Of a stretch of 64,000 nucleotides of DNA, positions 3,138-59,176 are shown in pieces. A model generated the notes under the pieces. That model made no database searches. It was not told the origin of the DNA and saw only the letters and a list, made by a program, of their open reading frames with translations. Numbering within the stretch: the stretch's first letter is position 1; each line of letters opens with the position of its first letter. Location of the stretch: contig NW_025946074.1 in the NCBI RefSeq assembly GCF_000764305.2, forward strand, positions 248,001-312,000. Reading direction: 5' to 3'. The position numbers and the translations under genes are program-made. This stretch comes from Hyalella azteca (taxonomy: Eukaryota; Arthropoda; Malacostraca; Amphipoda; Hyalellidae).

Positions 3138-3765
3138 TCAAGGGTGGGTCACCCTGAAGTCAAATTAAGGGTGAGTCACCCTGCTGAAGGGTGAGTCACC
3201 CTGCAGAAGGGTGAGTCACTCTGCTGAAGGGTGAATCACCCTGCAGAAGGGTGAGTCACTCTGCTGAAGGGTGAATCACCCTGCAGAAGGGTGAGTCACC
3301 CTGCAGAAGAGTGAGTCACCCTGCAGATGGGTGAGTCACCCTGCAGAAGGGTGAGTCACCCTGCAGAAGGGTGAGTCACCCTGCAGAAGAGTGAGTCACA
3401 CTGCAGATGAGTGAGTCACCCTGCAGAAGGGTGAGTCACCCTGCAGATGGGTGAGTCACCCTGCAGAAGGGTGAGTCACCCTGCAGAAGGGCGGGTCACC
3501 CTGCAGATGGGTGAGTCATCCTGCAGATGGGTGAGTCACCCTGCAGAAGAGTGGGTCACCCTGCAGTAGGGTGGGTCACCCTGCAGAAGGGTGAGTCACC
3601 CTGCAGAAGAGTGGGTCACCTTGCAGAAGAGTGGGTCACCCTGCAGTAGGGTGGGTCACCCTGCAGAAGGGTGAGTCACCCTGCAGAAGAGTGGGTCACC
3701 CTGCAGATGGGTGAGTCACCCTGCAGAAGGGTGAGTCACCCTGCAGAATTGTGGGTCACGCAGTC
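3138..3765. repeat. 20-bp minisatellite with AP-1-like palindrome
   Basis: About 30 head-to-tail copies of a 20-bp unit, AGGGTGAGTCACCCTGCAGA. Each intact unit contains the 13-bp perfect palindrome GGGTGAGTCACCC, whose core TGAGTCA is the AP-1/TRE consensus, followed by the palindrome CTGCAG. Some units carry GGGTCA or TGAATCA instead. The array is bounded on both sides by a similar AGTCAAATTAAGG segment. Confidence 0.95.
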
Positions 3766-9573: not shown

Positions 9574-9974
9574 TGTACCGAGCTGGGAGTGACAAGCTTA
9601 TGTAACGGATGGCGTAACGGGCCATCGCATATAGTGATGATATAACGGAAAATATAATATGTTTATCATCAGAATTGGGAAATAGGTATCGGAGTACGAA
9701 ATGAGTAACAGAGTACGAAAAGGGTCATTGTAGTGGAGACATAACGGACCTATGAAAGGTGCAATAAATTGAATTATTTTAATAGGTGCCACAACCGGCC
9801 CATAAACAGGCTAAAAAGGAGCTCTCAGCATAATCTATTACGTATATACAAAGGACAAATTTCTTACGTCAATAAAGCAGCATCATAAACCAAATAAACG
9901 CTCATAATACATGCGCGAGGGCTTTAAAAGTTATCGTGTATTTATTATGACAAAATTACAAACTTTTAATTGTA

Positions 9975-10916
9975 CAGGATCATCAATATTTAGCGTTACA
10001 TTTTTTCAAAATCAATTGTTGATAATTGTCCTCGACATTTGTCATTTGTTTACACCTTCTCAATAATATTTATCATTATTTATCATTTATCATCTTTATG
10101 GTGCCAAAAAAAAACCAACTGGCTGCTCAAGTTTTTGGCAAACGCCTCCAAAGATCCAATATTCTTCTTTCCCGCATTCATGATAGCACGCTGCCAAACC
10201 TCGTTTTCAGTGATGAGAAGATATTCAATGTTGAACACCACTTCAACTCCCAAAATGATCGAATTTGGTCGAAGAATGGGGACGAAGGATCCCGTGTGGT
10301 GACTAGGAAGCAATGCCCGACCTCAGTGATGGTCTGGGCAGCCGTAACAGAGTCCTCAAGGAGTCCCCTCTTTTTTGTTAACAAAGGGGTGAAATTGAAT
10401 CAGAAAAACTATCGAGATGCCATCCTTGTTGGTGCATTTTTGCCCTCGGCATGAAAGCACTTCAGAAAACGTCGCTGGTCGTTCCAGCAGGACTCTGCAC
10501 CATCCCATGGGGCCAAATCGATTCAGGAGTGGCTGTCCGAGAATGTTCCCCACTTCATTACCAAAGATGAATGGCCCCCATCGTCACCCGATCTGAATAC
10601 TCTGTGGATTTTGGGATCTGGTCATACCTTGAGAGCAAGGTCTCGACCGTTCACCATCACAGTTTGGACGCCCTAAAGGTCAACTGCTGAAGGAGTGGGC
10701 CAAAATCCCGCAGAGTGTCATTCGTGACTCGTGTAAGGTTTTCTCAAAGCGTCTACAACTCGTTATTGATGCAGATGGTAGACATATTGAATGAAATTGT
10801 GGGAATTGTATCTCTGAACCTCTGCCTACATAAATACATTTTCAAACATTCACAATTGTGTTTCATTTCATAGTTCTAACCACTCAAAGTTGTAACGCTA
10901 AATATTGATGACCCTG
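9975..10916 (+). mobile_element. Tc1/mariner (maT-like, DD37D) element, inactive
   Basis: A 942-bp element flanked by TA on both sides (9973-9974 and 10917-10918). The inverted termini begin CAGGATCATC on the left and CAGGGTCATC on the inverted right, identical over 26 bp except for one base. The inside resembles the catalytic half of a transposase: FSDEKIFNVE, SVMVWAAV, a FQQDSAPSH block and a WPPSSPDLN block. The second and third acidic residues are about 37 apart once a small insertion is allowed for, as in the DD37D (maT) group. It lacks the N-terminal DNA-binding half and has in-frame stops and frameshifts. It lies in the intron or intergenic DNA just upstream of the first visible decarboxylase exon. 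Confidence 0.88.
10120..10800 (+). pseudogene. Transposase remnant of the maT-like element
   Basis: The reading frame begins inside the family (a PKKNQLAAQVFGKRL-like segment) and runs through the DDE core to a TGA at about 10452. It resumes after that stop as KHFRKRRWSFQQDSAPSH, then is shifted by two extra bases just before the expected LDFGIWSYLESK block near 10602. Further stops follow. It cannot make an active protein and is a fossil copy. Confidence 0.85.
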
Positions 10917-10972: not shown

Positions 10973-11147
10973 GACATCCACGCTTCATGAAACAGCTGTT
11001 GTGTGGGCCGGAATTCAATTTAATATTGATGTGTCTCAGGACATCCACGCTTCATGAACCAGCTGTCATGTGGGCTAGAGTTCAATTTAATATTGATGTG
11101 TTTCAGGACATCCACGCTTCATGAACCAGCTGTCGTGTGGGCTGGAG
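10973..11147 (+). repeat. 67-bp tandem triplication of Gad1 exon 5' edge
   Basis: The units start at 10973, 11040 and 11107. Each contains about 41 bp of exon (GACATCCACGCTTCATGAAC...) and 26 bp of intron ending in GTGTCTCAG or GTGTTTCAG. The third copy is the true exon start. The spacing is not a multiple of three. Confidence 0.95.
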
Positions 11148-11240
11148 GTGATATCGCTGGGCGGAGAATGGCTGACGGCTGCTGCCAACATCAATATGTT
11201 CACCTACGAGATCGCTCCGGTCTTCATTCTCATGGAGCAG
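11107..11240 (+). CDS. Gad1: Gad1 exon ([13 protein letters not shown]...ILMEQ)
   Basis: The acceptor is TTTCAG before 11107 and the donor GTTTGT after 11240. It begins with the last two bases of a Gly codon (G|GA, CAT CCA CGC = G-H-P-R) and ends in phase 0. Two extra copies of the first 41 bp and its acceptor lie immediately upstream. Confidence 0.95.
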
Positions 11241-14200
11241 GTTTGTAATATATATTATTATAATGTAATGTTATTATAATGGCTAGTCATTGTTCGAATT
11301 CACTTACGAGATTACCCCAATTTTTTTCCTTATGCATTGACAATCAATGCTGATTTTGATGATAATTTGTATGATCTCCTGAAACGAGATAGAGATGATT
11401 CCTGAAAACTGAATGTATATATCTATATAAGCATCGTTATTTGGCATGGGTTAATAAAGTAGATTTGATCATCGTCATTTTTAATCACATTAATAAAATT
11501 ACCCTGATCCTGATATGATAATTGTAAGGCTGTTGAACACTTGATTGTAGTTATTACATGATAAACTTGGTTCGTAGCTGTAACATTAGTTTTTCTACTC
11601 ATATCTTTGGTCAGGTAATAGTTCGCTGCATCCTTCTTTCTCCTGTTTAAAAAACTCTTACTTTATAATCCTTCCTTATTTCTATATCAAATAACCTAAC
11701 GCTACCTGACTATGCAGCACATGCGACACATGACCATGCGCATCTTTATCTACCCTCCAGGTGACCATGCGACACATGACCATGCGCATCTTTATCTAAC
11801 CTGCNTCACGTAGCAGTTATTCTCTCGTCTAGTTCAATGTTAGGAGTGTTGTTTTCTCTTATTTTCTGCCTTATTGAAGATTAAGATCTTCAGAGAAACG
11901 TGTCTGGCGAGAATATAATGATGTTAAAAAATATAATCTATCAGATTTTCGTTAATTTTAATCAGGGTAATTTCTGTCTCTTATACACATCTAGATGTGT
12001 ATAAGAGACAGCTTCACTTCATGCTCACTTCCTCCATGTGAGTACGCCATATGCATGTGCACTTCACTTCATGTTCACTTCACTCCATGTGAGTACGCCT
12101 TATGCAAGTTCACTTCACTTCATATAGCGCACAGAAATTCATTTATAAGGCTAGATGTTGTAGTTATTGGTATTGGTAACATATGCTAGATGTTGTAGTT
12201 ATTGGTATTGGTAACATATGCAAATATTGGTAAAATATGCAAACATAAACATTGTTTTAATAAAAAAGTCTTTTATTCATATGGCTAGATGATGCAGTTG
12301 ATCTAATCTACGTTGATAATTATAACATATTCAAATGTTGATAACATATGCAAATATTGGTATCATATGTAAATATTGGTATAATATTCAAATATTGGTA
12401 AAATATGCAAATATAATCATTGTTTCAATAAATAAAACTCGCCACCAGAGCCACTATTCGCTGAAGGGCGCCGCGGCAACCATGGGTCTGGGCACTGACA
12501 ACCTCGTGCTGGTGCCCGTGGACGCTAAGTGCGTCAGGCGTATATTAATTAATTAATGTACAACACATTCTCAGGATTATAACGCATTATCTTGATTATA
12601 ACACATTTTTTTACTCTAACGCATTATCTTGATTATAACGCATTATTTTGACTCTAACACATTATCTTAATTATAACGCATTATCTTGATTATAACACAT
12701 TATCTTGATTGTAACACATTAGTTCGCCGATGATAAATCACTTAAATATTGTCAGATTAGCTCAATTATAAGTTATAATTTAAATTATAACACATTAGAC
12801 TAAAAATAAACATTATATATATCTGTGAGCCCATAACTAGTCTTGGAAAATAAGAAAAGTTATAAATTAAATCTAGATTTTATATAGACGAAATTCAAAT
12901 TATTATGTATTTTTCGTCAAATAAAATATTTTACGATGTCAAGAATTATGAACTAACATAAATCACACCATTGATATGAAGTTTCATCTATTCTACTCTC
13001 TAATTTCCAGAGGTCGAATGATCCCAGCTGAGCTGGATCGTCTCATAGAGGAGCAGAAGGCGAAGGGCAACACACCCTTCTTCGTGTGCGCCACGGCGGG
13101 CACTACCGTCATGGGGGCGTTCGACCCTCTGCACGCCGTCGCCGACGTCTGCGATAAACACAAGCTTTGGTTCCATGTCGATGTGAGTGCAGGAATAAAC
13201 TGGCTTCAGTTGATAAAGGGAGACAAAAATTTGAGAAATTAATTTAACCTAGGTAATTAAAAGTTAAGAGGCTGACAGACAGCTTAGTATCTTAAATAAG
13301 TTTGTTTTTACTTTTCTTTTATTGCACCGGAATCAACTTTTGCAAACAAAATTAATTGCATTTGTGAATGTTGTTAACTCCAATTTTACTTCATTCAAAC
13401 ATATGACATCAACACAAATGATTGCATGCCGAAAGAAAGTCTACGGATTTCACTCCGAATGTTTAACTTACTTTCTGACGCCGATAACAAAAAGTATGCC
13501 GTTCAGCCATTTAATATGCATTAGAATAAAATTTTTATCAAGAAAAAGTTTTAAAAGTAAGAAAAACATTTTAGTTTTAAATGCTAAGTTGTAATCGATT
13601 TTAACCAGGCGGCATGGGGCGGCGGGGTGCTACTGAGCAAGAGCACGCGACACAAGATGGCGGGCGTAGAGCGCTCTCAGAGCATCACTTGGAACCCGCA
13701 TAAGCTGATGGGGGTCCTGCTGCAGTGCTCCACTGTGCACTTCCAGGAGGATGTTAGTACATTGTGCATAATTTTATTAGATTTATACATCTTTAGGGTG
13801 TTTTTTATAGTGCACTTCCAGGAGGATGTTAGTACATTGTGCATGACTTTATTATTTTTTATAAATCATTAGGGTGTTTTTTTAATGCCCATCCAGGAAG
13901 ATGTTAGTACATTGTGCATAATTTTATTAGATTTATACATCTTTAGGGTGTTTTTTATAGTGCACTTCCAGGAAGATGTTAGTATATTGTGCATGACTTT
14001 ATTATTTTTTATAAATCATTAGGGTGTTTTTTTAAAATGCCCTTCCAGGAAGATGTTAGTACATTGTGCATGATCTTATTAGTTTTATTCATTTTTAGGG
14101 TGTTTTTTTAAAGTGTACTTCTAGGAGGATGTTAGTATATTGTGTATGATTTATTAGTTTTTTAAATCATTTGGGTGTTTTTTAAAGTGCACTTCCAGGA

Positions 14201-15810
14201 AGATGTTAGTATATTGTGCATAATTTTATTATATATTTCATACATTTTTATGGTGTTTTTTTACAGTGTACTTCCAGGAAGATGTCAGTACATTGTGCAT
14301 GATTTTATTATTTTTATATATCTTTATGGTGTTTTTTACAGTGTTCTTTCAGGAAGGTGTCGTACATTGTGCATAATTTTATTATTTTTTATACATTTTT
14401 GAAGCGTTCTAATAACAGCTCATTTAGCTTGTTTAGCGTTGCACTTCAACAGTATTACAAATAAAGTAGGAAGATCACAAGCAGGGCTTCGTATTAAATT
14501 ACTTTTCATGAATATTAGATTCTAAATTAATAATCAACAACTAATTATAAATCAACAATATCGGTATATTGCCAATTAAAACGGTAATAATATTTGTTTG
14601 TTATATTTTCCAGGGTTTGCTGATATCATGCAACTCAATGTGCGCAGACTACCTCTTCCAGCAAGACAAACCTTACGACGTAACTTACGACACGGGTGAT
14701 AAGGTCATCCAATGTGGCCGTCATAATGACATCTTCAAGTTCTGGTTGCTCTGGAGGTCTAAGGTTAATAATAATATTCATGTTAAACTTACGCTTCCTG
14801 CGTGTACAACTTAGAGTAAATTGTCTTAAATTTATATGATATTAACTTTTCAAATCAAGGCTTTCTAAGTGTATAACTTTCGCTTATGTTAATTATGACT
14901 TTTACAATATTACATTTTCTTTTGCAATATTATATTTTATTTTGCAATATTACTCGTACATTTTCTTTCGCAATTTTACATATTCTCTTACAATATTACA
15001 TTTTCTTTTGCAATGTTGAATTTTCTTTCGCAATATTGCATTTTCTTTCGCAATATTACATTTAATTCATTTTAATAACGTCAGGGTGACTCTGGGTTCG
15101 AGAAGCACATCGACCACTTGTTCGAGATGACCGCGTATCTCGTGGAGAAGCTGAAGGCCCATAGCGATAAGTTTGAGCTGCTCAACGACGAGCCTGAGTG
15201 TACGAACGTCTGCTTCTGGTATGTGCCGTTCCGACTGCGGACCATGAAGGCGGGGCCTGAGCGCCACAAGCTGCTGGGAGAGGTGAGCAAGTGGATAACC
15301 GCGTCGAAATGTCCTGTCATTTGAATAAATTTAAGAGCTAACCGCTCAGCTTTGAAAGTTATCAAAATGAGCGCTTATTGAATGGTGTGAAGTTTAGAAA
15401 TAGATGTAAATGGTCTCTTAGCTCTAAAATAGTAATTCAATGAATTCAATGGCATTCTTGAGAGAATTCATTAAAATTGGTAAATTAATTAGTGCTCTAA
15501 TGCTTTAGGTTGATAACCCACTAAAACTGTAGAAAAGCATTGACAACTATAACCACACAAAATTATTGGGAACAATGTTATCTAAACATTATGTATTAAA
15601 CCTATACTTTTAATAACTAACCCATCCCTCCCGCAGGTCCAGCCCATCCTGAAGGGTCGTATGATGACCGCAGGATCGCTGATGATCGGCTATCAGCCCC
15701 TGGATGATCACCCGAACTTCTTCCGCAACATCATCTCGTCGCAAGCCGTTTGTCGTGACGATATCGACTTCATGATCGAGGAGCTCGATCGTCTTGGGTA
15801 CGATTTGTAA
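11107..15810 (+). CDS. Gad1: Glutamate decarboxylase (GABA synthesis), partial, 7 exons
   Basis: Pyridoxal-phosphate enzyme that converts L-glutamate to GABA and CO2, in arthropods mainly in inhibitory neurons. Exons: 11107-11240, 12449-12528, 13011-13182, 13609-13752, 14614-14763, 15085-15282 and 15637-15810. Junction phases agree throughout, except between exons 1 and 2. Visible family blocks are [16 protein letters not shown] and [46 protein letters not shown] (formed across an exon junction), TWNPHK with the PLP-binding lysine, [35 protein letters not shown] and the C-terminus RLGYDL. The N-terminal ~140 residues lie outside what I can find. About 60-65 residues between FILMEQ and SHYSLK (the GD..APGGS-type block) are absent, beside an adapter scar. 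The start codon is not visible. Identification is very secure; completeness is not. Confidence 0.96.
11196..11340 (+). repeat. Diverged copy of Gad1 exon 3' edge
   Basis: The exon segment GTTCACCTACGAGATCGCTC (from about 11196) has a diverged counterpart at about 11297 (AATTCACTTACGAGATTACC), roughly 100 bp downstream and inside the intron. Confidence 0.65.
11700..11805. repeat. ~50-bp direct duplication ending at an undetermined base
   Basis: CATGCGACACATGACCATGCGCATCTTTATCTA occurs at about 11719 and again at about 11765. The assembly has a single N at 11805, just after the second copy. Confidence 0.8.
11974..12011. other. Nextera/Tn5 mosaic-end dimer (sequencing adapter scar)
   Basis: CTGTCTCTTATACACATCT followed directly by its reverse complement, giving a perfect 38-bp palindrome. 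This is the Tn5 mosaic-end pair that forms the circularisation junction in Nextera mate-pair libraries, not genomic DNA. A frame read across it starts MCIRDS, a signature often seen in adapter-contaminated predictions. The two flanks may not be adjacent in the real genome. Confidence 0.97.
12013..12125. repeat. ~54-bp direct repeat, about 2 copies
   Basis: CACTTCACTTCATGTTCACTTC and CCATGTGAGTACGCC recur twice right after the adapter scar. Confidence 0.8.
12150..12440. repeat. Intron repeats (TATTGGTAACATATGCAAA family)
   Basis: A 37-bp segment around GCTAGATGTTGTAGTTATTGG is duplicated at 12151 and 12186. The phrase AATATTGGTAAAATATGCAAA then recurs around 12220 and 12390, with a CATTGTTTCAATAAA tail that lies next to the acceptor of the 12449 exon. 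Confidence 0.85.
12449..12528 (+). CDS. Gad1: Gad1 exon ([18 protein letters not shown])
   Basis: The acceptor is CACCAG before 12449. It ends in GAC GCT AA with donor GTGCGT, and the split codon AA|A (Lys) is completed at 13011, giving VDAKGRMIP. The preceding coding exon is missing from the window. Confidence 0.92.
12555..12725. repeat. ~20-bp intron minisatellite
   Basis: About eight copies of CATTATCTTGATTATAACA/G begin some 30 bp after the donor of the 12449-12528 exon. Confidence 0.9.
13011..13182 (+). CDS. Gad1: Gad1 exon (GRMIPAELD...WFHVD)
   Basis: Acceptor TTTCCAG, donor GTGAGT. It carries [19 protein letters not shown] and ends on the Asp of the HVDAAWGGG motif, which contacts the PLP ring nitrogen in this fold-type I family. 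Confidence 0.97.
13609..13752 (+). CDS. Gad1: Gad1 exon with PLP lysine (TWNPHK)
   Basis: Acceptor AACCAG, donor GTTAGT, 48 codons in phase 0. It encodes [28 protein letters not shown] and [10 protein letters not shown]. The NPHK lysine is the family's Schiff-base residue. The donor region is tandemly amplified downstream. Confidence 0.97.
13735..14400 (+). repeat. ~75-bp array, 9 copies, amplified from Gad1 donor region
   Basis: Copies begin near 13737, 13811, 13887, 13962, 14038, 14113, 14188, 14266 and 14340. Each has a T-run, a CTTCCAG-like acceptor, the six bases GAGGAT or GAAGAT, and GTTAGT or GTCAGT. The first copy is the real exon end (...FQED) and donor. Later copies have diverged. 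Confidence 0.95.
14614..14763 (+). CDS. Gad1: Gad1 exon (GLLISCNSM...LLWRSK)
   Basis: Acceptor TTTTCCAG, donor GTTAAT, exactly 50 codons. It encodes [20 protein letters not shown], one of the most conserved stretches of animal decarboxylases. Confidence 0.97.
14890..15065. repeat. ~24-bp intron minisatellite
   Basis: About eight copies of TTACATTTTCTTTCGCAATA, ending about 20 bp before the acceptor of the 15085 exon; it supplies a long pyrimidine-rich tract. Confidence 0.9.
15085..15282 (+). CDS. Gad1: Gad1 exon ([10 protein letters not shown]...HKLLGE)
   Basis: Acceptor ACGTCAG, donor GTGAGC, 66 codons. It includes [14 protein letters not shown] of the C-terminal domain. Confidence 0.96.
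15637..15810 (+). CDS. Gad1: Gad1 terminal exon ([10 protein letters not shown]...RLGYDL stop)
   Basis: Acceptor CCCGCAG; 57 codons plus TAA at 15808-15810. It contains [17 protein letters not shown] and [13 protein letters not shown]. Its last ~70 bp, including the stop, recur three more times downstream. Confidence 0.97.
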   Translation, partial: VQPILKGRMMTAGSLMIGYQPLDDHPNFFRNIISSQAVCRDDIDFMIEELDRLGYDL

Positions 15811-16068
15811 ACATCAAGCCGGTGCAAGCCGTTTGTCGTGACGATATCGACTTCATGATCGAGGAACTCGATCGTCTTGGGTACGATTTGTAAACATCAA
15901 GCCGGTGCAAGCCGTTTGTCGTGACGATATCGACTTCGTGATAGAGGAACTCGATCGTCTTGGGTACGATTTGTAAACATCAAGCCTGTGCAAGCCGTTT
16001 GTCGTGACGATATCGACTTCGTGATCGAGTAGCTTGATCGTCATGGAAAAGATATGTAAACATCAAAC
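15741..16068 (+). repeat. 83-bp tandem repeat of the Gad1 3' end including stop
   Basis: Units start at 15741, 15824, 15907 and 15990. The first is the coding end ([19 protein letters not shown]..., stop). The next two are nearly identical and the fourth has diverged. Copies two to four lie in the presumed 3' UTR and each retains the stop region. Confidence 0.96.
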
Positions 16069-35724: not shown

Positions 35725-38700
35725 GTTAGTTTTAAATTTATGCATTCAAAAATTCTTTTTGTCAGCCTCAAAGACGATTAATCTTCAACTTTTAAACATT
35801 CATTTACAAAAACCTAGCATTACATATTTATGAGTATAATATGATATAGCTGAGGCTCTCATCATTAAGCATGTCTTCAGCTAAAAATTTACAAACTTCA
35901 GGATTTGTAAGGACGTTGTAACTGCTCTGGTAACTTTGATTTTTAAACTGTATCCAAAATACCCTATGTTAGTATTAGATGGCAGAATTTTCCTGTTTAT
36001 TCGCGTATGATTAATGACCGCAGAATGCATGAATGAATCCTTATGTTTGTATGTTGTCATGTAAAAATGTTGCTTGGAAACGTTGTCATTTCAAAATTCT
36101 AAATTCAAGTGTTGCAAAATTCTTCCTCTACTTGATAACGAATGTAGTTACATTCGAAACGGTATAAATATAATAAAATTCCCCGTATAGACCTTATATA
36201 TGAATTTTCAAGTCCTATCAAAAGCCTAATTCGCCGAATAGATAAAAACTACAAGAAAATACTCAATAAGAAAAACTCTCTGGTGTCAATGTAACCTGCA
36301 TTAAAGAAAAAAACAACTTCTGCCGAACTACACTAGTGAATGTGTATTGTATATACTGCAGCTGCAACAATGATCACAATTTTTATCGCAGTTTATCCTT
36401 TGAGTTGTGACATTGCAGGGCGAGTGGCAGCTTGATAACATCAGGAGGGCTTGGTGGCACAGGCATCACGCAAAGACCTCATCGTCTCACGCCGATGGTC
36501 AAAGAACCCGCGCTGCACGCTCCAGTCCTGCCTAAAATTTCTCATACGAAACCTGCTGCGCTCGTTACTGGAGGACTACACTTGTCTGTCAACTATACGA
36601 ACAACTTGGATATTGGTAAGGCAATTTTTGCGTAATATCCAGCGTGATAAATGTATAATTAAGAAGAATTTAAATACGGTCATGTTCAGTTAACTTATGT
36701 TGAGAGTAATAATTCTGGTCAGTTCGAAACACTAATTACCCAGTTAATTTATCATGTTTAATCTTACTTTTTGCCTGAAAACGCAAAATTGGTTCATGAC
36801 TGAAAGAAATGGTCGTTTCGGGTTAAATTCAGTTGAAAAATATTTTGCACTTGTAAAATTCTGTTTCTTACTAGACCAACTGCTGCAGTACCTCCAGGAA
36901 ATCTTTTGACATCTGCGATATGGAAACATTATGCAAAATCAACCATCTTAAAATTATTAATATTGCATTCGCGTCATCGAGCATATAGTACACCTACAAT
37001 CGAAACTTTAGCGTTCAAAAGTTGAAGAAATAACACTTCACTAGAGTGATTGAAATATCCTTCAATCTCTATCATTGTTAAAAAATTGCCGAAAAACGGT
37101 CTTTCGGCATTTCAAGGAACGGCCGGCACGTAAAAAAACAACGTGTCACAACAACGTGTACTTTTTCCCAATTTAACACTAGAAATCCATACAAAATTAA
37201 ATTTATATCTAAATTTTACTTTTAATTTCGCTAGGTGGCTGGTTACTAGGACGCCAGTCAGACCGTTTTTCCACGGTTATTTCGAACAGTGCACGTGAAA
37301 CAATTTTCACGGTTATTTTGAGCAGTGCATGTGGAACAATTTTCACGGTTATTTTGAACAGTGTATGTGAAACAATTCAATGAACAAGGGAAGTGTTCGT
37401 GCCGACACCAGTCTGCCCTCGGGACATCGATCCCTCACACGTGCAATTAAGCGGAGCTTGAGCCAAACTTGCGTGCGATCTAAGCTTAGATTTCTGTGCC
37501 TCACTCTTTATCAATATAGTATTAAATCGGATCAGAAATTATCTGAAACATCGAAATAAATGATGATAATGCAGTGTTAAAAAAATGTTCGTTGTTAACT
37601 TTAAATTAGAGAGTATTTCAATTATCGATTTTTTACGCATCTTAGAATGCATGGTGTAAAAATATAGTCTTTTTGACACCTATCAAAGAATTTCACGTAA
37701 ATAATTATCAGATTAATAGTTATTATCATAATTAAATTCCCTGAATTTTTATAATTTCCTAGTAATTGTCCAAGCATAAACGGGCATGTGATTAAACACA
37801 TCCGTGCACGGTCTTTAGGAATAATGTCCCTTACAGCATTCCTTCGCTAGATTGCGCTTCGCCAAACGCGGCTCCACTTCAGCCATAAACATTCTTAAGA
37901 ATATTCATTAATCGATGAGATTCATTAATTTATGAACTTTTAATGAAGAAAATCATTCGCGGATTTTCGCTGGTTTGCGGGTTACTGAAAAAGTTGAGCA
38001 GCAAATTTTAAAAGCCAGCTGTTCCCGATCTGCAGCAATAGTGTAGAAAAGGTTCAAAAATACTTAATACAATGAAAATAATTAATATATAAATGCCTAA
38101 ATAATTACTCTCAGTCTATCAATTCCTTATCGTGGATTTCACCCATCGAGACCGAGGTCTTCGCATTTCCCTCGACAGAACAAATCCCTCAATTGTCAAC
38201 AGAAGCACTGAAACGTTCATGTCTCCCTCAGCAGGCTCAACAGAACAAATCCCTCATGTATCAACAGAAGCACTGAAATGTTCATGTCTCCCTCAGCAAA
38301 CTCAACAGAACAAATTCCTCATGTATCAACAGAAGCATCCATGATCCTGAGGGACCGGGCGAAGGCGCTGAAGCCCCGCATCCGCAGATTGAATTCCCTG
38401 GACGACCTGACGAGCGCCGGGGGCGGCGACCCTGGGGACCCCGAGGGCTCCCTCTACAGGCCCAGCAGCGCCCCGGACCTCGCCAACAAACAGCAAACAG
38501 TAATATATTTTAAAACGAACATTCTCAGTTGTAGGAATCAAAATTGTGAATGACCAAAAATTTCGTTACTAATTCATTCTGATTTGAAACGAAATAATGA
38601 CAGTTAATTCACGTTGAATATGGGTTTTACAGGAATACCATGAAAGCCGCTAAAAGAAGGGATTAATATAGTATATGAATATTCTCATACTGAAGAATTA

Positions 38701-44096: not shown

Positions 44097-47000
44097 CTGT
44101 AAGGAACGCGTCATAAAATGCAGTCGACATGACTATTGGTCAAATAAAAGGACTGCCAACAAATATAAACCTTCTAAATGCAGACTCAACATTTTTTTAC
44201 ATTCCACAGAATAGTATTTTTCTATTTTCATGCCTAGTTTGGTATATAAGTCAGGTAAATGATAAATTTTCTCATTTTTCTGTATATTGCGAAAAAAATC
44301 ACGTTGATAATCAATTTTTTAACCTGAACCCATTGTCTACTAAAATATGGCAACCCTAGAATTTATTATCCTAGTTTTAATATAATCTAGTATTTCAGGT
44401 AACCTTACCTTCCTGTGACAGGCTTCCTCCGAGGGCTGCAAGGCCTTGAGGGGTGATCCGAGGGCAGCCTCGACACACCGCACTGCCTGCACCAGCTCCC
44501 TCAGCTGCGAGGGCTCCAGCGAACAGCGGTGGTCACTGCCCTGCTGGTCCTTGCTCAGCGTTACGTGACGCTCTAGAACCTAGAAAATATTACAATATTT
44601 TCGAACATTTTTCCAAAAAGTTAATTTTGAACCTATAGACACTCTCACACCATTTATAATCCTTGCTCAGCATCACGTGATGTGCTAGAACCTATATAGA
44701 AAATATTATACTATTTACTAATATTTCCCCCAAAAGTTAATCCTGAACCTATAGAACATGTCACATTATTGTATAATCCTTGCTCAGCGTCACGCGACAT
44801 ACGAGAATTAGAAAGTGTCTCACGGCTCTCTATTATTTCCGCCAGACATTACTGCAGAAATTAAAAATATTACTTTACTTTATAATATTTGCTTAGCGTC
44901 TCGTGATGCTCTATAACCTAGAAAATATTACGCTGTTTTATAATATTTTTAAAAACTTTTTTTCCAGAACCTAAAGCAAATGACATAATTTTATAATGCT
45001 TGCTCAGCGCCATGTGTCGCTCAAGAACCCAAAACATATCACTCTATTTTGTAATATATTATTATTGTAAACAAATAATAACGTTATTTAAGAAATTTGC
45101 GTCACAAAAAGACACAGATTTAGCGTAACTACACGCCTAATTGAACCAAGAAAATGTGTCAGTTAAGTTGACAAAATCCATGAAAATAAAGTCAACTTCG
45201 ATAATTATAATGTTTAATGGGGTAATTGTGAGGTAATTGGGGTAATTCATGAGAGTTTAGAGTATGAATGTGGGTGAGCGTTACTTATCGTTCCTTAGAT
45301 TAATAAAACCTCATAATCTTTTACGTTACCTCATCTGCTATTATACTTAGGATATAATTGTGCGATTCCAACACTAAATACGTTACTAAATATGCATTAT
45401 TATATTATTATCACATCCAATAGAACCGCAAAACTGCTCGAGCACTGAGTTAATGCATCAAATTCATTACGAAACTCGTCATTCGATGTTTGAACTGTAC
45501 ACATTACTTTATACAATTTAAGAATTATCCACCATTACACAATTTAATATTACATTGCATTACAATAATATTTAATATTACATTACAATTTATTGCAAAT
45601 ATTAAATAAAAATAACTAATAATTATATAGTATCTGTCAGGTACCCTGGCTCCTCTCGCGGCCGCGGCGACGCTGATGTATATGCCCTCCTCATGGCCGG
45701 AGTAGCCGATATGAGCCCGAGGAAATACCTGCCAAATGACATTTTTTTAAAGTTAAACCCGTTTCAAAACTATTTATCTTTGATCACAATCGCAATTAAA
45801 GACACTTCGTTAAAGTAAAACTTTACTCTCAATTTAGAATAAAAAAAATAAACATAAAATTTGCCATGTGGATGATAAAACCCGAGTTATTAGAAACAAT
45901 GCAGTTTTAACGGCAGAAAATATTTGAACACCGAATAATCCCAAATGAATAAGTCTCTAAAGTATTAACAGTAATTTAGAAGTAAGCAACATTAGTCATT
46001 CTTATATCACTTGGGTTTGAAATTTTGTTATATTTGAGATTCAACAAATTAGAGTGAACAGCCAACTTTAACTAGAAATTCTCAAATTCAAAATGCATTG
46101 ACAATACAAAATATCATGATGCTATGTCAAGTGATTGTTATCATTGATGCTAAGCAATGTTCAATGTTAAAGACAATAATTGATACATTGCACGAAACTG
46201 TGCTTAAAGACTAAATCTTGCCCGTAATTAGGTAAAGAATAAATGCATAATATCAATAAAAAATGTGTTTCTCGCAGGCATTAAACCGAAGAAAACATAA
46301 GAATTAATAAAAAAAAGAAGTTTATCCACGTTAGCACAAAACATTGAACTCATAAATAAAACACGGCTTAATCACAATAATGAAAAGATATGAATTTGCG
46401 AGAATCTGAATTTCGAAAAAAAAACGAGTAAAAAGTTTTACCGAACGAAATATATATTTTTGTGGTAGGAATAAGAAGCACTAATTACCTGGGCGTAGGT
46501 ATCAAGTACTCTGAGGTGCGCATGGTGCGCAGGAGTGGGGTACGATGAGGTACACTGCAAGAGTACCAGAGCTGTACCAGGCGATATGTCGGTCAGGTCC
46601 TGATATACCGTGCGTACCCAGTCAAAGTCACTCATGCCTGTAATCATAATTCTAGTTTTAGATAAAATGCTATATACTAGGATTTTTATATATTTTTATT
46701 TGTTTTCTATTTTAATGTATTTTTATTTTTGTTTATTTTATCTCCACCTCATAAACAATTTATATTTACAAACGATCATTGATTTCAAATTCGTATCTCA
46801 TTGAATACTCATGGTTGCGTGCGAATGAATTTCATCAAATGAATAAGAAAAAATAAGTGATCAGAGCTCGGGTATCATTTTCACCTTAGAATATCCTGAA
46901 GCAACGTTCGAATAACTAATGTTTATAGTTTTAAACACAGCACAATATTGAAAATTATCTGCGGGAGCAAGAAATATATAAAGATGATTTTATTTAATAT

Positions 47001-48427
47001 ATATAAAGCATCTTGTTTTCGGAAAAAATTATATTATTCTCAATCGATGAACTGGAATGTGAAAAATCCACGGATAATGTACCCAGGATTTAACTATCTT
47101 CTTGACCAACAAAAAAACGTAGCCTCGATCAAAAAGGACTTATACCCCATTATAACAGTTCATTCCCTAAATAAACAGCAATATTAATTGAGGCGTGATT
47201 ACTAACCGGTTGAAATGACGAGCGGCCGTCTCGTTGCTGCGGCTCTCCTGATCAACGGAAGGTTACACACGTCCCCGGACCCGATCTTAATGAAAGGCAC
47301 GTTCACTGCATCCAGGAAGTCCAATGAAGGCTAAAAAAATCAAAGATAATATAGGGAATGAAGGTAACAATGATGATCTGAATAATGAAGACGAAATTAT
47401 TGCCTATAATATAGCTTTGATGTGAGCGAGGGTTAATTACATCGGAAGCTACACGAGATGGAGTGGAACAGAAATAATGGTTGGCAATTCAGCAGTTTCA
47501 AACATAATTAACTTCTTCTTGGTGATCATACATGAAATTTTGAAATGTGATTAGTTTACTTTAAAAATCAAATTGCACAGTCGTGAGACTGATATTTACT
47601 TCAGGAGACGTCAAAGTCTCTGCTCAGTAGATAAACTATACGGAATTTAATTTAATGTGAAAAACTACGATAAAATTTAATAGAAAATTAAATAAAAATT
47701 CAATCGATGATACTCAAAATAATTAAATGAAAAAAAACAGACATATTCACACGATCTCAGTATCAATGTCGATATTGAAATATGAATTAACAATTGACGT
47801 ACCGCATCCATGGCAGACGCAGTGAGAGGCATGTTAATTGACGTCGCATAGTCTTGTATTTCTCTGAACTGCTGCTCGGAGAGCTCGAGTTTCTGCTTAT
47901 GTTCTCCGTAAGTTGGGCCGAGAGCGTGTGGACCTTCGTATGGCCGGTCCAGAGCTGCCTGGGTGAACTTCGATGACAAGCAAGATTTTTGTAGCTTTAC
48001 ACAGTCCGCCCCACTTTCCTGTTAGAGATATCAGAGACGTAACAACATCCAATTTATTTATTTATTTATCTGATGAACTTTCAATAATTCAATTTAATTA
48101 ACGAGGATCATCGCAATACATTTTTTGCAAATGACAGCACAATAATTTCACACAGCGATCCAGTGAGCAGCATTAAACTGATCAGAATATAATGAATACA
48201 TTATAAATGTAAAAAAAACAGTGTTCAATTACAACGATTAATGAAATTCCATAGCAATTTATTTGTAAAAATTGTCATCTCAGAGCATTTATGAGCACCT
48301 TGGCCTTTCTGACGAGAGTCTTAGCTGTCTCCACACAGCCCTGATGATTCTGTCCGATTTCTGCGATGATGAAGCAAGGCTGTCCTTCTCCGATATACCT
48401 TCCGGGCACCAACTCTAGTGGCTCCAT
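43911..48427 (-). CDS. NANS: N-acetylneuraminate-9-phosphate (sialic acid) synthase
   Basis: It condenses phosphoenolpyruvate with N-acetylmannosamine-6-phosphate to give sialic acid 9-phosphate in the cytosol. Seven coding exons in minus-strand order: 48427-48299, 48018-47803, 47330-47207, 46637-46489, 45728-45645, 44579-44409 and 44096-43911. All splice phases agree and the product is about 352 residues, close to the ~359 of the human enzyme. It begins MEPLELVPGRYIGEGQPCFI and has the NeuB-type motifs FIIAEIGQNHQG, SGADCVKLQKS, VPFIKIGSGD, LLQCTSSYPTP, IGYSGHEEG and LERHVTLSKDQQGSDH; the two His in GHE and ERH match the metal ligands known for NeuB. A C-terminal SAF (antifreeze-like) domain follows: LGKSVVAARDLPSGHILTEE. 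No residue or motif appears lost. The 5' UTR begins beyond an intron. Confidence 0.97.
44409..44579 (-). CDS. NANS: NANS coding exon 6
   Basis: Acceptor TTTCTAG, donor GTAAGG, 57 codons starting VLERHVTLSKDQQGSDHRCS. Its acceptor edge is repeated upstream in the intron. Confidence 0.97.
44545..45050 (-). repeat. Tandem copies of NANS exon 6 acceptor edge, 5 copies
   Basis: CTTGCTCAGCGTTACGTGAC (plus strand) and variants occur at about 44550, 44661, 44779, 44890 and 44997, each followed by a TAGAACCTAGAAAATATTA-like segment. The first is the real exon start and acceptor; the others are intronic and diverged. Period 106-118 bp. Confidence 0.93.
45645..45728 (-). CDS. NANS: NANS coding exon 5
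   Basis: Acceptor TTGGCAG, donor GTACCT, exactly 28 codons: VFPRAHIGYSGHEEGIYISV and AAAARGAR. It contains one metal-ligand His. Confidence 0.95.
46489..46637 (-). CDS. NANS: NANS coding exon 4
   Basis: Acceptor ATTACAG, donor GTAATT. It encodes GMSDFDWVRTVYQDL, LVLLQCTSSYPTP and LRVLDTYAQ. Confidence 0.97.
47207..47330 (-). CDS. NANS: NANS coding exon 3
   Basis: Acceptor TTTTTTAG, donor G|GTTAGT. It encodes PSLDFLDAVNVPFIKIGSGD and RRPLVISTG. Confidence 0.97.
47803..48018 (-). CDS. NANS: NANS coding exon 2
   Basis: Acceptor TAACAG, donor GTACGT, 72 codons, phase 0. ESGADCVKLQKS and LTASAMDA are the diagnostic parts. Confidence 0.97.
48299..48427 (-). CDS. NANS: NANS coding exon 1
   Basis: ATG at 48427, 43 codons to KAK with donor GTGCTC. 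The exon extends 5' as UTR to about 48443, preceded by an acceptor TTCCAG, so at least one upstream non-coding exon is expected. Confidence 0.95.
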
Positions 48428-48710
48428 ATTGCTATGGTCACACCTGGAATTATTGTGAAGAATAATATTCAATATCACTGGTTCCCTCAAAAATATACCT
48501 TCGCTACTTCAACTCCAGTGGCTCAATATTGCTATGGTTGCACCTGGAATTATTTTGAAGAATAATGTTTCATTAATTCTATATCAATAACACTCTAGAC
48601 GGTAGACTTCACAGACACCAACTCTAATGGCCCAGGCTCCTTAATGATATGGTCACTCCTGGAGTTATTGAGACGTATAATATTTAATTATTTCAACATT
48701 ATTGTGACGC
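48405..48710 (-). repeat. Tandem copies of NANS exon 1 5' edge, 3 copies
   Basis: CACCAACTCTAGTGGCTCCA, then TATTGCTATGGTCACACCTGG (plus strand) recurs at about 48410, 48510 and 48622, with a GGAATTATTGTGAAGAATAAT tail. The first is the real start-codon exon edge. In the second the start-codon position reads CAATAT with no ATG at the same place. Confidence 0.9.
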
Positions 48711-57860: not shown

Positions 57861-57977
57861 CGAATGTTTCATTAGTGAGACAAGTTGATACGATAATTAA
57901 ATTAAATTTTTAGAGTATTGTGCTCATTTTGACGAATTGCACTCATGTTCCGAACTTTTCCCTTCAGTGAATTTAAA

Positions 57978-59063
57978 ATGGGTAAAAGCAAACGTAAACG
58001 CAGTGGTAGTGTCACGAAAAACAGTGGTACATCAGCACACCAGCAAGGTAATAAGAATGACGGTAAACCCGTGAAAAATCCACACAACAACAGACGGAAA
58101 AGCAGCACGACGAAACCTTGCCAAAACAAACAAGAACAAAATATAACAAATGGACCAAGTCTCGATGAAACTAAACCTGAGCATCAACAATCTCAAGATG
58201 GTCGTGATGATCAAGTGAATATTCAAAATTCTGATTCCATGAATGATTTTCAACATTCATGTATAGTCGACTACTCTGTAGCAAAGGAAGAATTATCAAG
58301 CCATTGCTCCGGGGAGAACCCGCATGAGGGATTAGAGGAAAATCATGCGCGAGTGCCTGAAAAGAAGGAGCTTAGGCAACGAGAAGTAGAAAATAAACTG
58401 TGCCCAAGAAATCCCGACGAATCGGTGCTTAACAATTGTAAACCAATTAAAAAAGAAGAATTGGAGCACAACGAAGGACCTGTGAATGTAGACTTTGTTC
58501 TCGAAAACGATGGTCTCAAAAAAGAACTGTCTCCAGTAGAAACGCGTCATCACGTGGCCGTTGCAACATCTAATTCGATAACTTTGGATGCGATAAATTT
58601 CAAGAATACTTGTGACGTTCAGGACAAAAATAAAAATTCATTTGACTTCGACGCAGCGATTCATATTTCAAATGACGCCTCAAGTAACGACATTACCGCA
58701 CCACATACAAGCATTACAGATGAAAAACTGGACCCTAATGAAGATGTTAATGAGTCTAGACCAACATTAAGTGAAAATTCAAATAATTTAGAATCAGCAT
58801 TTTTGCGTAACGTTTCTGAATCCTCCGACGATGTTTTTGACGAGCCCAGCGTTACTGATAACGAACTGCAATCATGTGTAGGCAGTTCCGAATCTGCGAT
58901 CCAAGGAATGAGCAATGGTAATGGGGCGAGCGCATTGGACTATAACGCTAACATCGCATTATACAACTCATGTAATGGGTTGAATTCCAGGTCTGGTGAT
59001 GAATACTCGGATTCTGAAGAAACACATCCAAGCGTTGAAAAGATACCTACAGAAACTTCTCAG
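57978..59063 (+). CDS. Unrecognised basic/acidic low-complexity protein, first exon
   Basis: A single open exon of 362 codons ending in phase 0 at TCTCAG|GTAAGC, so the gene continues in exons I cannot identify. I prefer the Met at 57978 (AAAATGG, a good initiation context) over the one 11 codons upstream at 57945. The N-terminus MGKSKRKRSGSVTKNSG is strongly basic and resembles a nuclear or nucleolar localisation signal. About 60 more basic, Asn/Gln/Ser-rich residues follow, then a long acidic Ser/Asn/Glu/Asp-rich stretch (for example SESSDDVFDEPSVTDNELQS). There is no signal peptide, membrane segment or Cys pattern, and it is probably disordered. I do not recognise the family. The length, context and donor make it a real coding exon. 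Confidence 0.8.
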
Positions 59064-59067
59064 GTAA

Positions 59068-59176
59068 GCTGGAAATAAAATAAATCGTGTTAACTACTAA
59101 CGAAATGGAAATAAAATAAATCGTACTAATTACTAATGAAATGAAAATAAAATAAATCGTACTAACTAGTAACGAA
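59068..59176. repeat. ~39-bp repeat directly after a splice donor, 3 copies
   Basis: GGAAATAAAATAAATCGTGT with ACTACTAACGAAAT recurs three times, starting five bases after the donor of the 57.9-kb gene. Confidence 0.92.

What the first reader, a model, noticed from the sequence alone, without database searches (positions are those of the whole stretch)
10973..16068. Tandem repeats that grow out of exon edges: one gene, several splice sites or stop duplicated
In this decarboxylase gene an acceptor is triplicated (67-bp unit), a donor is present in nine copies (~75 bp) and the end of the coding sequence with its stop is present four times (83 bp); a diverged copy of another exon end lies near 11297. 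Two other genes in the window show the same thing (NANS, and the gene at 34.9-39.5 kb). The units differ in length and sequence, so this is not one satellite spreading. It looks like a recurrent process that makes local tandem copies starting at exon borders, or like selection or a repair process retaining them. I know of no named system of this kind. Copy divergence argues against an assembly error.
Basis: partly seen in the sequence, partly recalled or inferred. Interest (0 to 1): 0.88.

Follow-up and report, generated by a model that had tools for sequence, protein, structure and literature searches.

The report
Splice sites copied in tandem arrays
In the amphipod crustacean Hyalella azteca many exon ends, with their splice site or stop codon, are repeated several times in a row beside the working copy; this matches a little-known structure called a "mirage", described before in lancelets, and could be a raw material for new introns.

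Summary
Confirmed, and wider than reported. The window is from Hyalella azteca. In glutamate decarboxylase (GAD) an acceptor (67 bp, 2.6 copies), a donor (75 bp, 8.8) and the stop (83 bp, 3.9) are tandemly repeated; NANS and the 34.9-39.5 kb gene show the same. I found further cases in GAD, NANS, neighbouring TBK1 and 52 kinase-exon loci. There is a name: "mirages", tandem duplications of exon-intron boundaries in amphioxus (PMC3087553, PMC3902484); my searches showed none reported in crustaceans. Is the edge special? By coverage, no: edges lie in arrays as often as introns (13 of 64 vs 20.4%; 12 of 82 vs 14.1%). By where arrays start, probably: inner ends are 2.9-6.6 times denser 7-60 nt inside exons than in nearby intron, and a birth simulation expects 3.8-4.7 of 82 hits against 12 (9 without doubtful rows). 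The exon part is 13-85 nt whatever the unit length. The assembly has its own defects: 5,585 uncut Nextera junctions, one replacing part of GAD. None of 28 edge arrays contains an adapter; one lies beside one.

The parts
10973..11147 (+). 67-bp array, 2.6 copies: last 26 nt of intron + first 41 nt of GAD exon E1; the working acceptor is the third copy (11106|11107)
   Evidence: copies at -67 (39/40 identical around the junction) and -134 (29/40; lacks the intron part)
11107..11240 (+). GAD exon E1 (GHPRFMNQ...FILMEQ)
   Evidence: 87% identity to Penaeus GAD P0004
11297..11334 (+). possible diverged copy of the end of E1 ([12 protein letters not shown])
   Evidence: 75% over 12 aa, E 0.22; weak
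11974..12011 (.). Nextera mate-pair junction (two 19-nt mosaic ends head to head), an assembly artefact; most of the GAD stretch that Penaeus has between E1 and E2 is missing here
12012..12123 (+). 51-bp array, 2.2 copies, holding the end of the missing exon (MFTSLH) and its donor gtgagt
   Evidence: GADEMd; which copy is the working one is unknown because of the junction
12451..12528 (+). GAD exon E2
13011..13182 (+). GAD exon E3
13609..13752 (+). GAD exon E4
13735..14400 (+). 75-bp array, 8.8 copies: last 18 nt of E4 + donor + about 57 nt of intron
   Evidence: seven further copies listed, 0.76-0.86 ungapped identity to the exon copy
14614..14763 (+). GAD exon E5
15085..15282 (+). GAD exon E6
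15637..15810 (+). GAD exon E7 with stop
15741..16066 (+). 83-bp array, 3.9 copies: end of the coding sequence, stop codon and start of the 3' UTR
   Evidence: identities 1.00, 0.98, 0.64 going outwards
38171..38337 (+). 65-bp array, 2.6 copies, over the acceptor (about 38297|38298) of an exon of an unidentified gene
   Evidence: exon assigned by eye
44409..44581 (-). NANS exon 6 (VLERHVTLSKDQ...)
44548..45050 (-). NANS exon-6 acceptor with four further copies upstream (-112, -229, -338, -449), unevenly diverged
   Evidence: 24, 19, 34 and 29 of 40 identical around the junction
48302..48442 (-). NANS first coding exon (ATG at 48427)
48443..48660 (-). one clear (-100, 0.92) and one diverged (-215, 0.78) copy of the acceptor and start of that exon; not in the TRF list

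Best explanation
These are 'mirage'-type minisatellites. A short local tandem duplication (periods 22-338 bp measured here, the longest being multiples of a shorter unit) arises across an exon edge. It does no harm, because one copy of the splice site, or of the stop, stays joined to the exon body and keeps working while the extra copies fall into intron or 3' UTR (inferred). Duplications inside exons are purged (shown in so far as only one exon-internal array was seen among 66). Arrays then lengthen and shorten by unequal exchange or slippage and decay from the outer end (inferred; outermost copies are the most degraded in some arrays, not in others). On top of a very high genome-wide rate of tandem duplication, the edges themselves are hit about 2-6 times more often than the nearby intron (shown on a small sample). 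The DNA-level cause is not known. A fragile zone where GC-rich exon meets AT-rich intron, with flap or nick repair making the first copy, is my guess.
For: Structure: 13 of 64 mapped edges in five genes, and 12 of 82 resolved edges from 52 kinase-exon loci, lie in a local repeat at >=30/40 identity. Searches show copies in register, with exon end plus splice site. In 146 flanks, with exons read up to 250 nt deep where they are that long, 28 arrays span an edge, 37 are intronic and 1 is exon-internal. Excess at edges: inner ends at -60..-7 are 3.36/kb (26) against 0.97/kb (13) at +20..+140 (P 1.4e-4). A birth simulation matched to intron coverage expects 3.8-4.7 hits of 82 (maximum 7-8 in 25 runs) against 12 seen. 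Exon part 13-85 nt (median 34, 23 arrays), not growing with unit length (Spearman of exon part/unit against unit -0.82). Splicing: the NCBI GAD protein joins E0-E1 and E4-E5 at the exon-proximal copies and ends at the first stop. Literature: amphioxus mirages have the same architecture at 5' and 3' edges, with units of 10-72 and 150-160 bp, and are reported not to interfere with regular splicing.
Against: Plain coverage gives no edge excess over intron (13 of 64 = 20.3% vs 20.4%; 12 of 82 = 14.6% vs 14.1%). Without three doubtful rows the kinase hits are 9, about twice the simulated mean rather than three times. Kinase loci alone, minus doubtful rows, are thin: 8 against 4 inner ends, P 0.026. 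22 of 104 kinase edges could not be placed and were dropped. Some kinase loci are not independent (several from one gene; L070/L075 are 89.6% identical over 383 bp). One assembly with known misjoins; no reads, no second species and no RNA were seen.
Confidence: 0.72

Rival explanations
1. No edge preference: the genome is crowded with minisatellites, arrays fall anywhere in non-coding DNA, and those that include an exon edge catch the eye.
For: Edges are in arrays as often as intron positions; local repeats cover 11.6% and TRF 14% of 264 kb. With doubtful rows dropped the kinase sample shows 9 hits against 3.8-4.7 expected, a modest gap.
Against: An edge can be in an array only if the duplicated unit itself spans it, so the fair expectation is lower than coverage; array starts are denser at edges in each of the ten subsets tested.
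Confidence: 0.2
2. Assembly artefact: misjoins or gap filling copied exon ends.
For: 5,585 full Nextera junctions remain in the assembly; one replaces part of GAD and one, a base off the exact sequence, creates a false second copy of TBK1 exon 4.
Against: Of 28 edge-spanning arrays (read to 400 bp into the intron) none contains an adapter, 1 (GAD, 12012) has one within 200 bp, and 1 contains an N. Copies are diverged and numerous (24 listed, at the cap of the list, for TBK1 e4 donor). The false exon copy looks different: one copy, cut at the adapter.
Confidence: 0.05
3. Selection keeps the copies because they do something, such as decoy splice sites or tuning of splicing.
For: Arrays sit at splice sites, donors and acceptors alike (12 donor/stop, 11 acceptor after dropping doubtful rows).
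Against: Units, copy numbers and genes are unrelated; outer copies decay in some arrays; a stop codon is affected too; amphioxus mirages are reported not to interfere with splicing.
Confidence: 0.05
4. A mobile element or introner that inserts at exon edges.
For: None found beyond position.
Against: Units shown are made of their own exon and intron and share no sequence by eye.
Confidence: 0.01

Closest known systems
'Mirages': minisatellite-like tandem duplications of exon-intron boundaries in amphioxus (Adh3, globins BflGb6 and BflGb9, troponin C; likened to them, PGBD5)
   Same: Tandem units spanning an exon-intron boundary, at 5' and 3' edges, variable unit length, working copy next to the exon, many extra copies with intact AG/GT, cluster-end units left out of homogenization (PMC3087553: abstract passage and section 16 read; PMC3902484: one passage read)
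   Different: Amphipod crustacean instead of lancelet; seen at 12 of 82 edges in a sample of kinase exons rather than in a few genes; also over a stop codon; array starts counted against intron background, of which I saw nothing in the passages read
[quoted passage not shown] potato RdRp case, PMC4974935, passages read)
   Same: Duplication crossing an intron-exon boundary and carrying the acceptor
   Different: There the copy became a new intron/exon; here no new intron is shown
Ordinary intronic minisatellites
   Same: Tandem units of tens of bp, varied copy number
   Different: These start inside exons and carry a splice site or stop

Membership tests
Mirage (amphioxus) | Tandem repeat unit spans an exon-intron boundary | tested here: met
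Mirage (amphioxus) | Both 5' and 3' exon boundaries can be affected | tested here: met
   12 donor/stop and 11 acceptor after dropping doubtful rows
Mirage (amphioxus) | Unit length varies from gene to gene (10-160 bp reported) | tested here: met
   periods 22-338 bp (the longest are multiples of a shorter unit)
Mirage (amphioxus) | Regular splicing is not disturbed | tested here: inconclusive
   NCBI GAD protein uses the exon-proximal copies; it is a model and carries one bogus stretch elsewhere; no RNA seen
Mirage (amphioxus) | Copy number differs between haplotypes, somatic instability | not testable with these tools
   one assembly only
Mirage (amphioxus) | Cluster-end units escape homogenization | tested here: inconclusive
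   outermost copies degraded in GAD E1a, GAD stop, TBK1 e6a and GAD E0a; flat in GAD E4d and, over the 24 copies listed, TBK1 e4d; uneven in NANS e6
Intron gain by tandem duplication | A new intron absent from relatives | not tested
   no related genome held
Introner elements | Many introns share one sequence family | tested here: not met
   units differ between edges, by inspection; no formal all-against-all comparison was run

The most novel reading that the evidence does not exclude
Exon edges are themselves hot spots for tandem duplication in this lineage, with one breakpoint 13-85 nt inside the exon whatever the unit length, so that introns grow outward from their splice sites at roughly one edge in seven to nine. 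A process thought peculiar to cephalochordates is then general or has arisen twice, and it supplies spare splice sites from which new introns or exons can form.
Probability: 0.4. Interest if true: 0.78.

Novelty: new member of a known kind. Interest (0 to 1): 0.6.

Why it matters
Mirages are reported from a handful of amphioxus genes, with mechanism 'unclear' and a proposed role in intron gain. A crustacean in which a sizeable share of exon edges carry them, from near-identical to well diverged, makes three open questions testable: how they form, whether they feed intron gain, and how a spliceosome picks the right one of two dozen or more near-identical splice sites. The leftover Nextera junctions matter separately: one put a wrong stretch into a public protein record, and there are 5,585.

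Tried and rejected
Simple placement test (coverage of edges vs introns): no excess; reported, but judged the wrong null because an edge can be covered only if the unit spans it. A general 'youngest copy next to the exon' rule: rejected; GAD E4d and TBK1 e4d are flat. Exon-depth limit first seen with 80 nt of exon was a truncation risk; repeated with up to 250 nt. First birth simulation used TRF units (median 27 bp) and gave 1.8-2.7% expected at coverages of 5-12%; replaced by one using the local-repeat segments, whose settings above the observed coverage gave 6.0-9.0 of 82. Counting TBK1 exon 4 as duplicated: rejected, Nextera artefact. The ORF/codon scan for further genes in the flanks gave TACC (no edge array at 5 edges) and others not mapped; NANS was entered in a wrong frame in the training (though left out of the counts in 78), so those scans are only a guide. 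Doubtful rows set aside: L036acc, L050don, L069acc, L073acc, TBK1e7a. 22 of 104 kinase edges had no acceptable splice site and were dropped. The 10 inner ends at -7..+20 (2.54/kb) were counted in neither class.
Full report
WHAT THE WINDOW IS. The gene at 10.9-16.1 kb is glutamate decarboxylase (GAD): joined exons match human GAD1 in the PDB at E 1.7e-143, and the best database hit is 'glutamate decarboxylase [Hyalella azteca]', 100% identical, on a 717,163-base contig, the length of this window's contig. The species is inferred from that. The assembly held as G000 has 518,993,365 bases in 4,890 contigs.

THE OBSERVATION. Tandem Repeats Finder and exon mapping confirm the three GAD arrays: the E1 acceptor (67 bp, 2.6 copies), the E4 donor (75 bp, 8.8 copies) and the stop (83 bp, 3.9 copies). 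NANS (Pfam NeuB and SAF) has its exon-6 acceptor copied upstream over about 450 bp, and the gene at 34.9-39.5 kb has an acceptor in a 65-bp array. One TBK1 exon has arrays at both edges. The suggested copy at 11297 is weak.

UNBIASED SAMPLE. A Pfam kinase search of the whole genome listed 138 matches from 127 scored candidates of 624. I fetched 52 short stop-free ones with 400 bp on each side, chosen by eye in table order before reading them. Of 104 edges, 82 had an acceptable splice site. 12 of the 82 (14.6%; 5 of 36 donors, 7 of 46 acceptors) lie in a local repeat of at least 30/40 identity; intron positions at least 100 bp away do so in 14.1% of 19,804. Three of the 12 I count as doubtful. 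In the five mapped genes (GAD, NANS, the 34.9-39.5 kb gene, TBK1, TACC) the figures are 13 of 64 edges and 20.4% of intron positions more than 150 bp from an edge. So by plain coverage edges are not special. Splice-site positions that I entered by hand may be off by 1-3 nt.

WHY COVERAGE IS NOT THE RIGHT NULL. A splice site can belong to an array only if the duplicated unit itself crossed it, whereas an intron base can be covered by any of the copies. A simulation of uniformly placed births, with unit and copy numbers taken from 201 non-edge arrays of the contig, one conserved exon copy and intron coverage of 0.138, expects 3.8-4.7 hits of 82 (maximum 7-8 in 25 runs), against 12 seen, or 9 without the doubtful ones. 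A direct count of where arrays start gives, over 146 flanks, 26 inner ends at 7-60 nt inside the exon (3.36/kb) against 13 at 20-140 nt into the intron (0.97/kb; ratio 3.5, P 1.4e-4). Kinase loci alone, minus doubtful rows: 8 against 4 (P 0.026). The excess is therefore likely but rests on small numbers, and some loci are related (for example L070 and L075).

A FINGERPRINT. With exons read up to 250 nt deep, edge-spanning arrays reach 13 to 85 nt into the exon (median 34 in 23 arrays after dropping doubtful rows), whether the measured period is 22 or 338 bp. Short units are mostly exon, long ones mostly intron. If the breakpoint were uniform over the unit, all 11 units of 90 bp or more staying at or under 65 nt would have probability about 5e-4; I chose the cut-off after seeing the data, and at least two of the 11 periods are multiples of a shorter unit, so the true figure is larger. 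Selection against long decoy exons could set the upper limit; it would not explain the excess. Only 1 array of 66 was exon-internal.

HOW IT MOST LIKELY WORKS. Shown: in the cases examined the extra copies lie outside the exon body, the copy joined to the exon is intact, and the NCBI GAD protein follows the exon-proximal edges at E0-E1 and E4-E5 and the first stop. Inferred: such duplications are tolerated because a working edge remains; arrays then change length by unequal exchange or slippage. Not known: what makes the first copy and why edges are hit more often.

WHAT IS KNOWN. Amphioxus Adh3, globin and troponin C genes carry 'mirages', minisatellite-like tandem duplications of exon-intron boundaries, and PGBD5 has similar repeats. 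They occur at either exon edge, with units of 10-72 bp (Adh3) and 150-160 bp (globins), vary in copy number between haplotypes, and are reported not to interfere with splicing. Their origin is called unclear and a role in intron gain is proposed (PMC3087553, abstract passage and section 16 read; PMC3902484, one passage read). A potato gene gained an intron by a duplication crossing an intron-exon boundary (PMC4974935, passages read). The structure here meets the three mirage features that I could test fully; three others were inconclusive or not testable. I did not find it reported in crustaceans; the searches were made, seen as capped listings, in an open-licence library that lacks most subscription journals, so this is weak evidence of absence.

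ASSEMBLY DEFECTS. The window carries a full Nextera mate-pair junction at 11974-12011 (meaning recalled). Most of the 61-residue stretch that Penaeus GAD has between E1 and E2 found no match within the 264 kb searched, and the NCBI GAD protein contains instead residues read from beside the adapter. The genome holds 5,585 exact copies of the 38-nt junction. One false exon copy in TBK1 comes from such a junction, there one base off. Of 28 edge-spanning arrays none holds an adapter, one has one within 200 bp and one contains an N (arrays read to 400 bp, and kinase loci end there), so the arrays are not explained by this. Reads were not available to prove it.

Noticed in passing
window 11974-12011; whole assembly: A 38-nt Nextera mate-pair junction left in the sequence; 5,585 exact copies in the 519-Mb assembly, about one per 93 kb, each a likely misjoin.
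   Followed up: yes
window 12000-12090; protein P0001: The public Hyalella GAD protein carries a stretch (TASLHAHF...FTSLHS) that appears to be read from the adapter end and the array beside it, and lacks about 55 residues conserved in Penaeus (P0004).
   Followed up: partly
L020 about 9902-9965 (minus-strand reading), contig about 167.9 kb: A second TBK1 exon-4 copy that runs into a Nextera junction (one base off) followed by a piece of TBK1 exon 2 and an N: an assembly chimera, not a duplication.
   Followed up: yes
C4426 148001-412000: TRF arrays cover 14% of 264 kb (322 rows, many overlapping); about seven local-repeat segments per 10 kb.
   Followed up: yes
window 3167-3759: 20-bp array (29.6 copies) deep in the long GAD intron between E0 and E1 whose unit holds GGTGAGT and CCCTGCAG, so it looks like splice signals.
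   Followed up: no
window 10100-10790: Looks like a broken Tc1/mariner-type transposase just upstream of the GAD acceptor array (by eye, not searched).
   Followed up: no
window 57933-59075: Open frame of 381 codons, serine- and asparagine-rich by eye, gene not identified.
   Followed up: no
L070 and L075: Near-identical kinase exons (89.6% over 383 bp) on two contigs, both with an edge array: a recent paralogue pair or unmerged haplotypes.
   Followed up: partly
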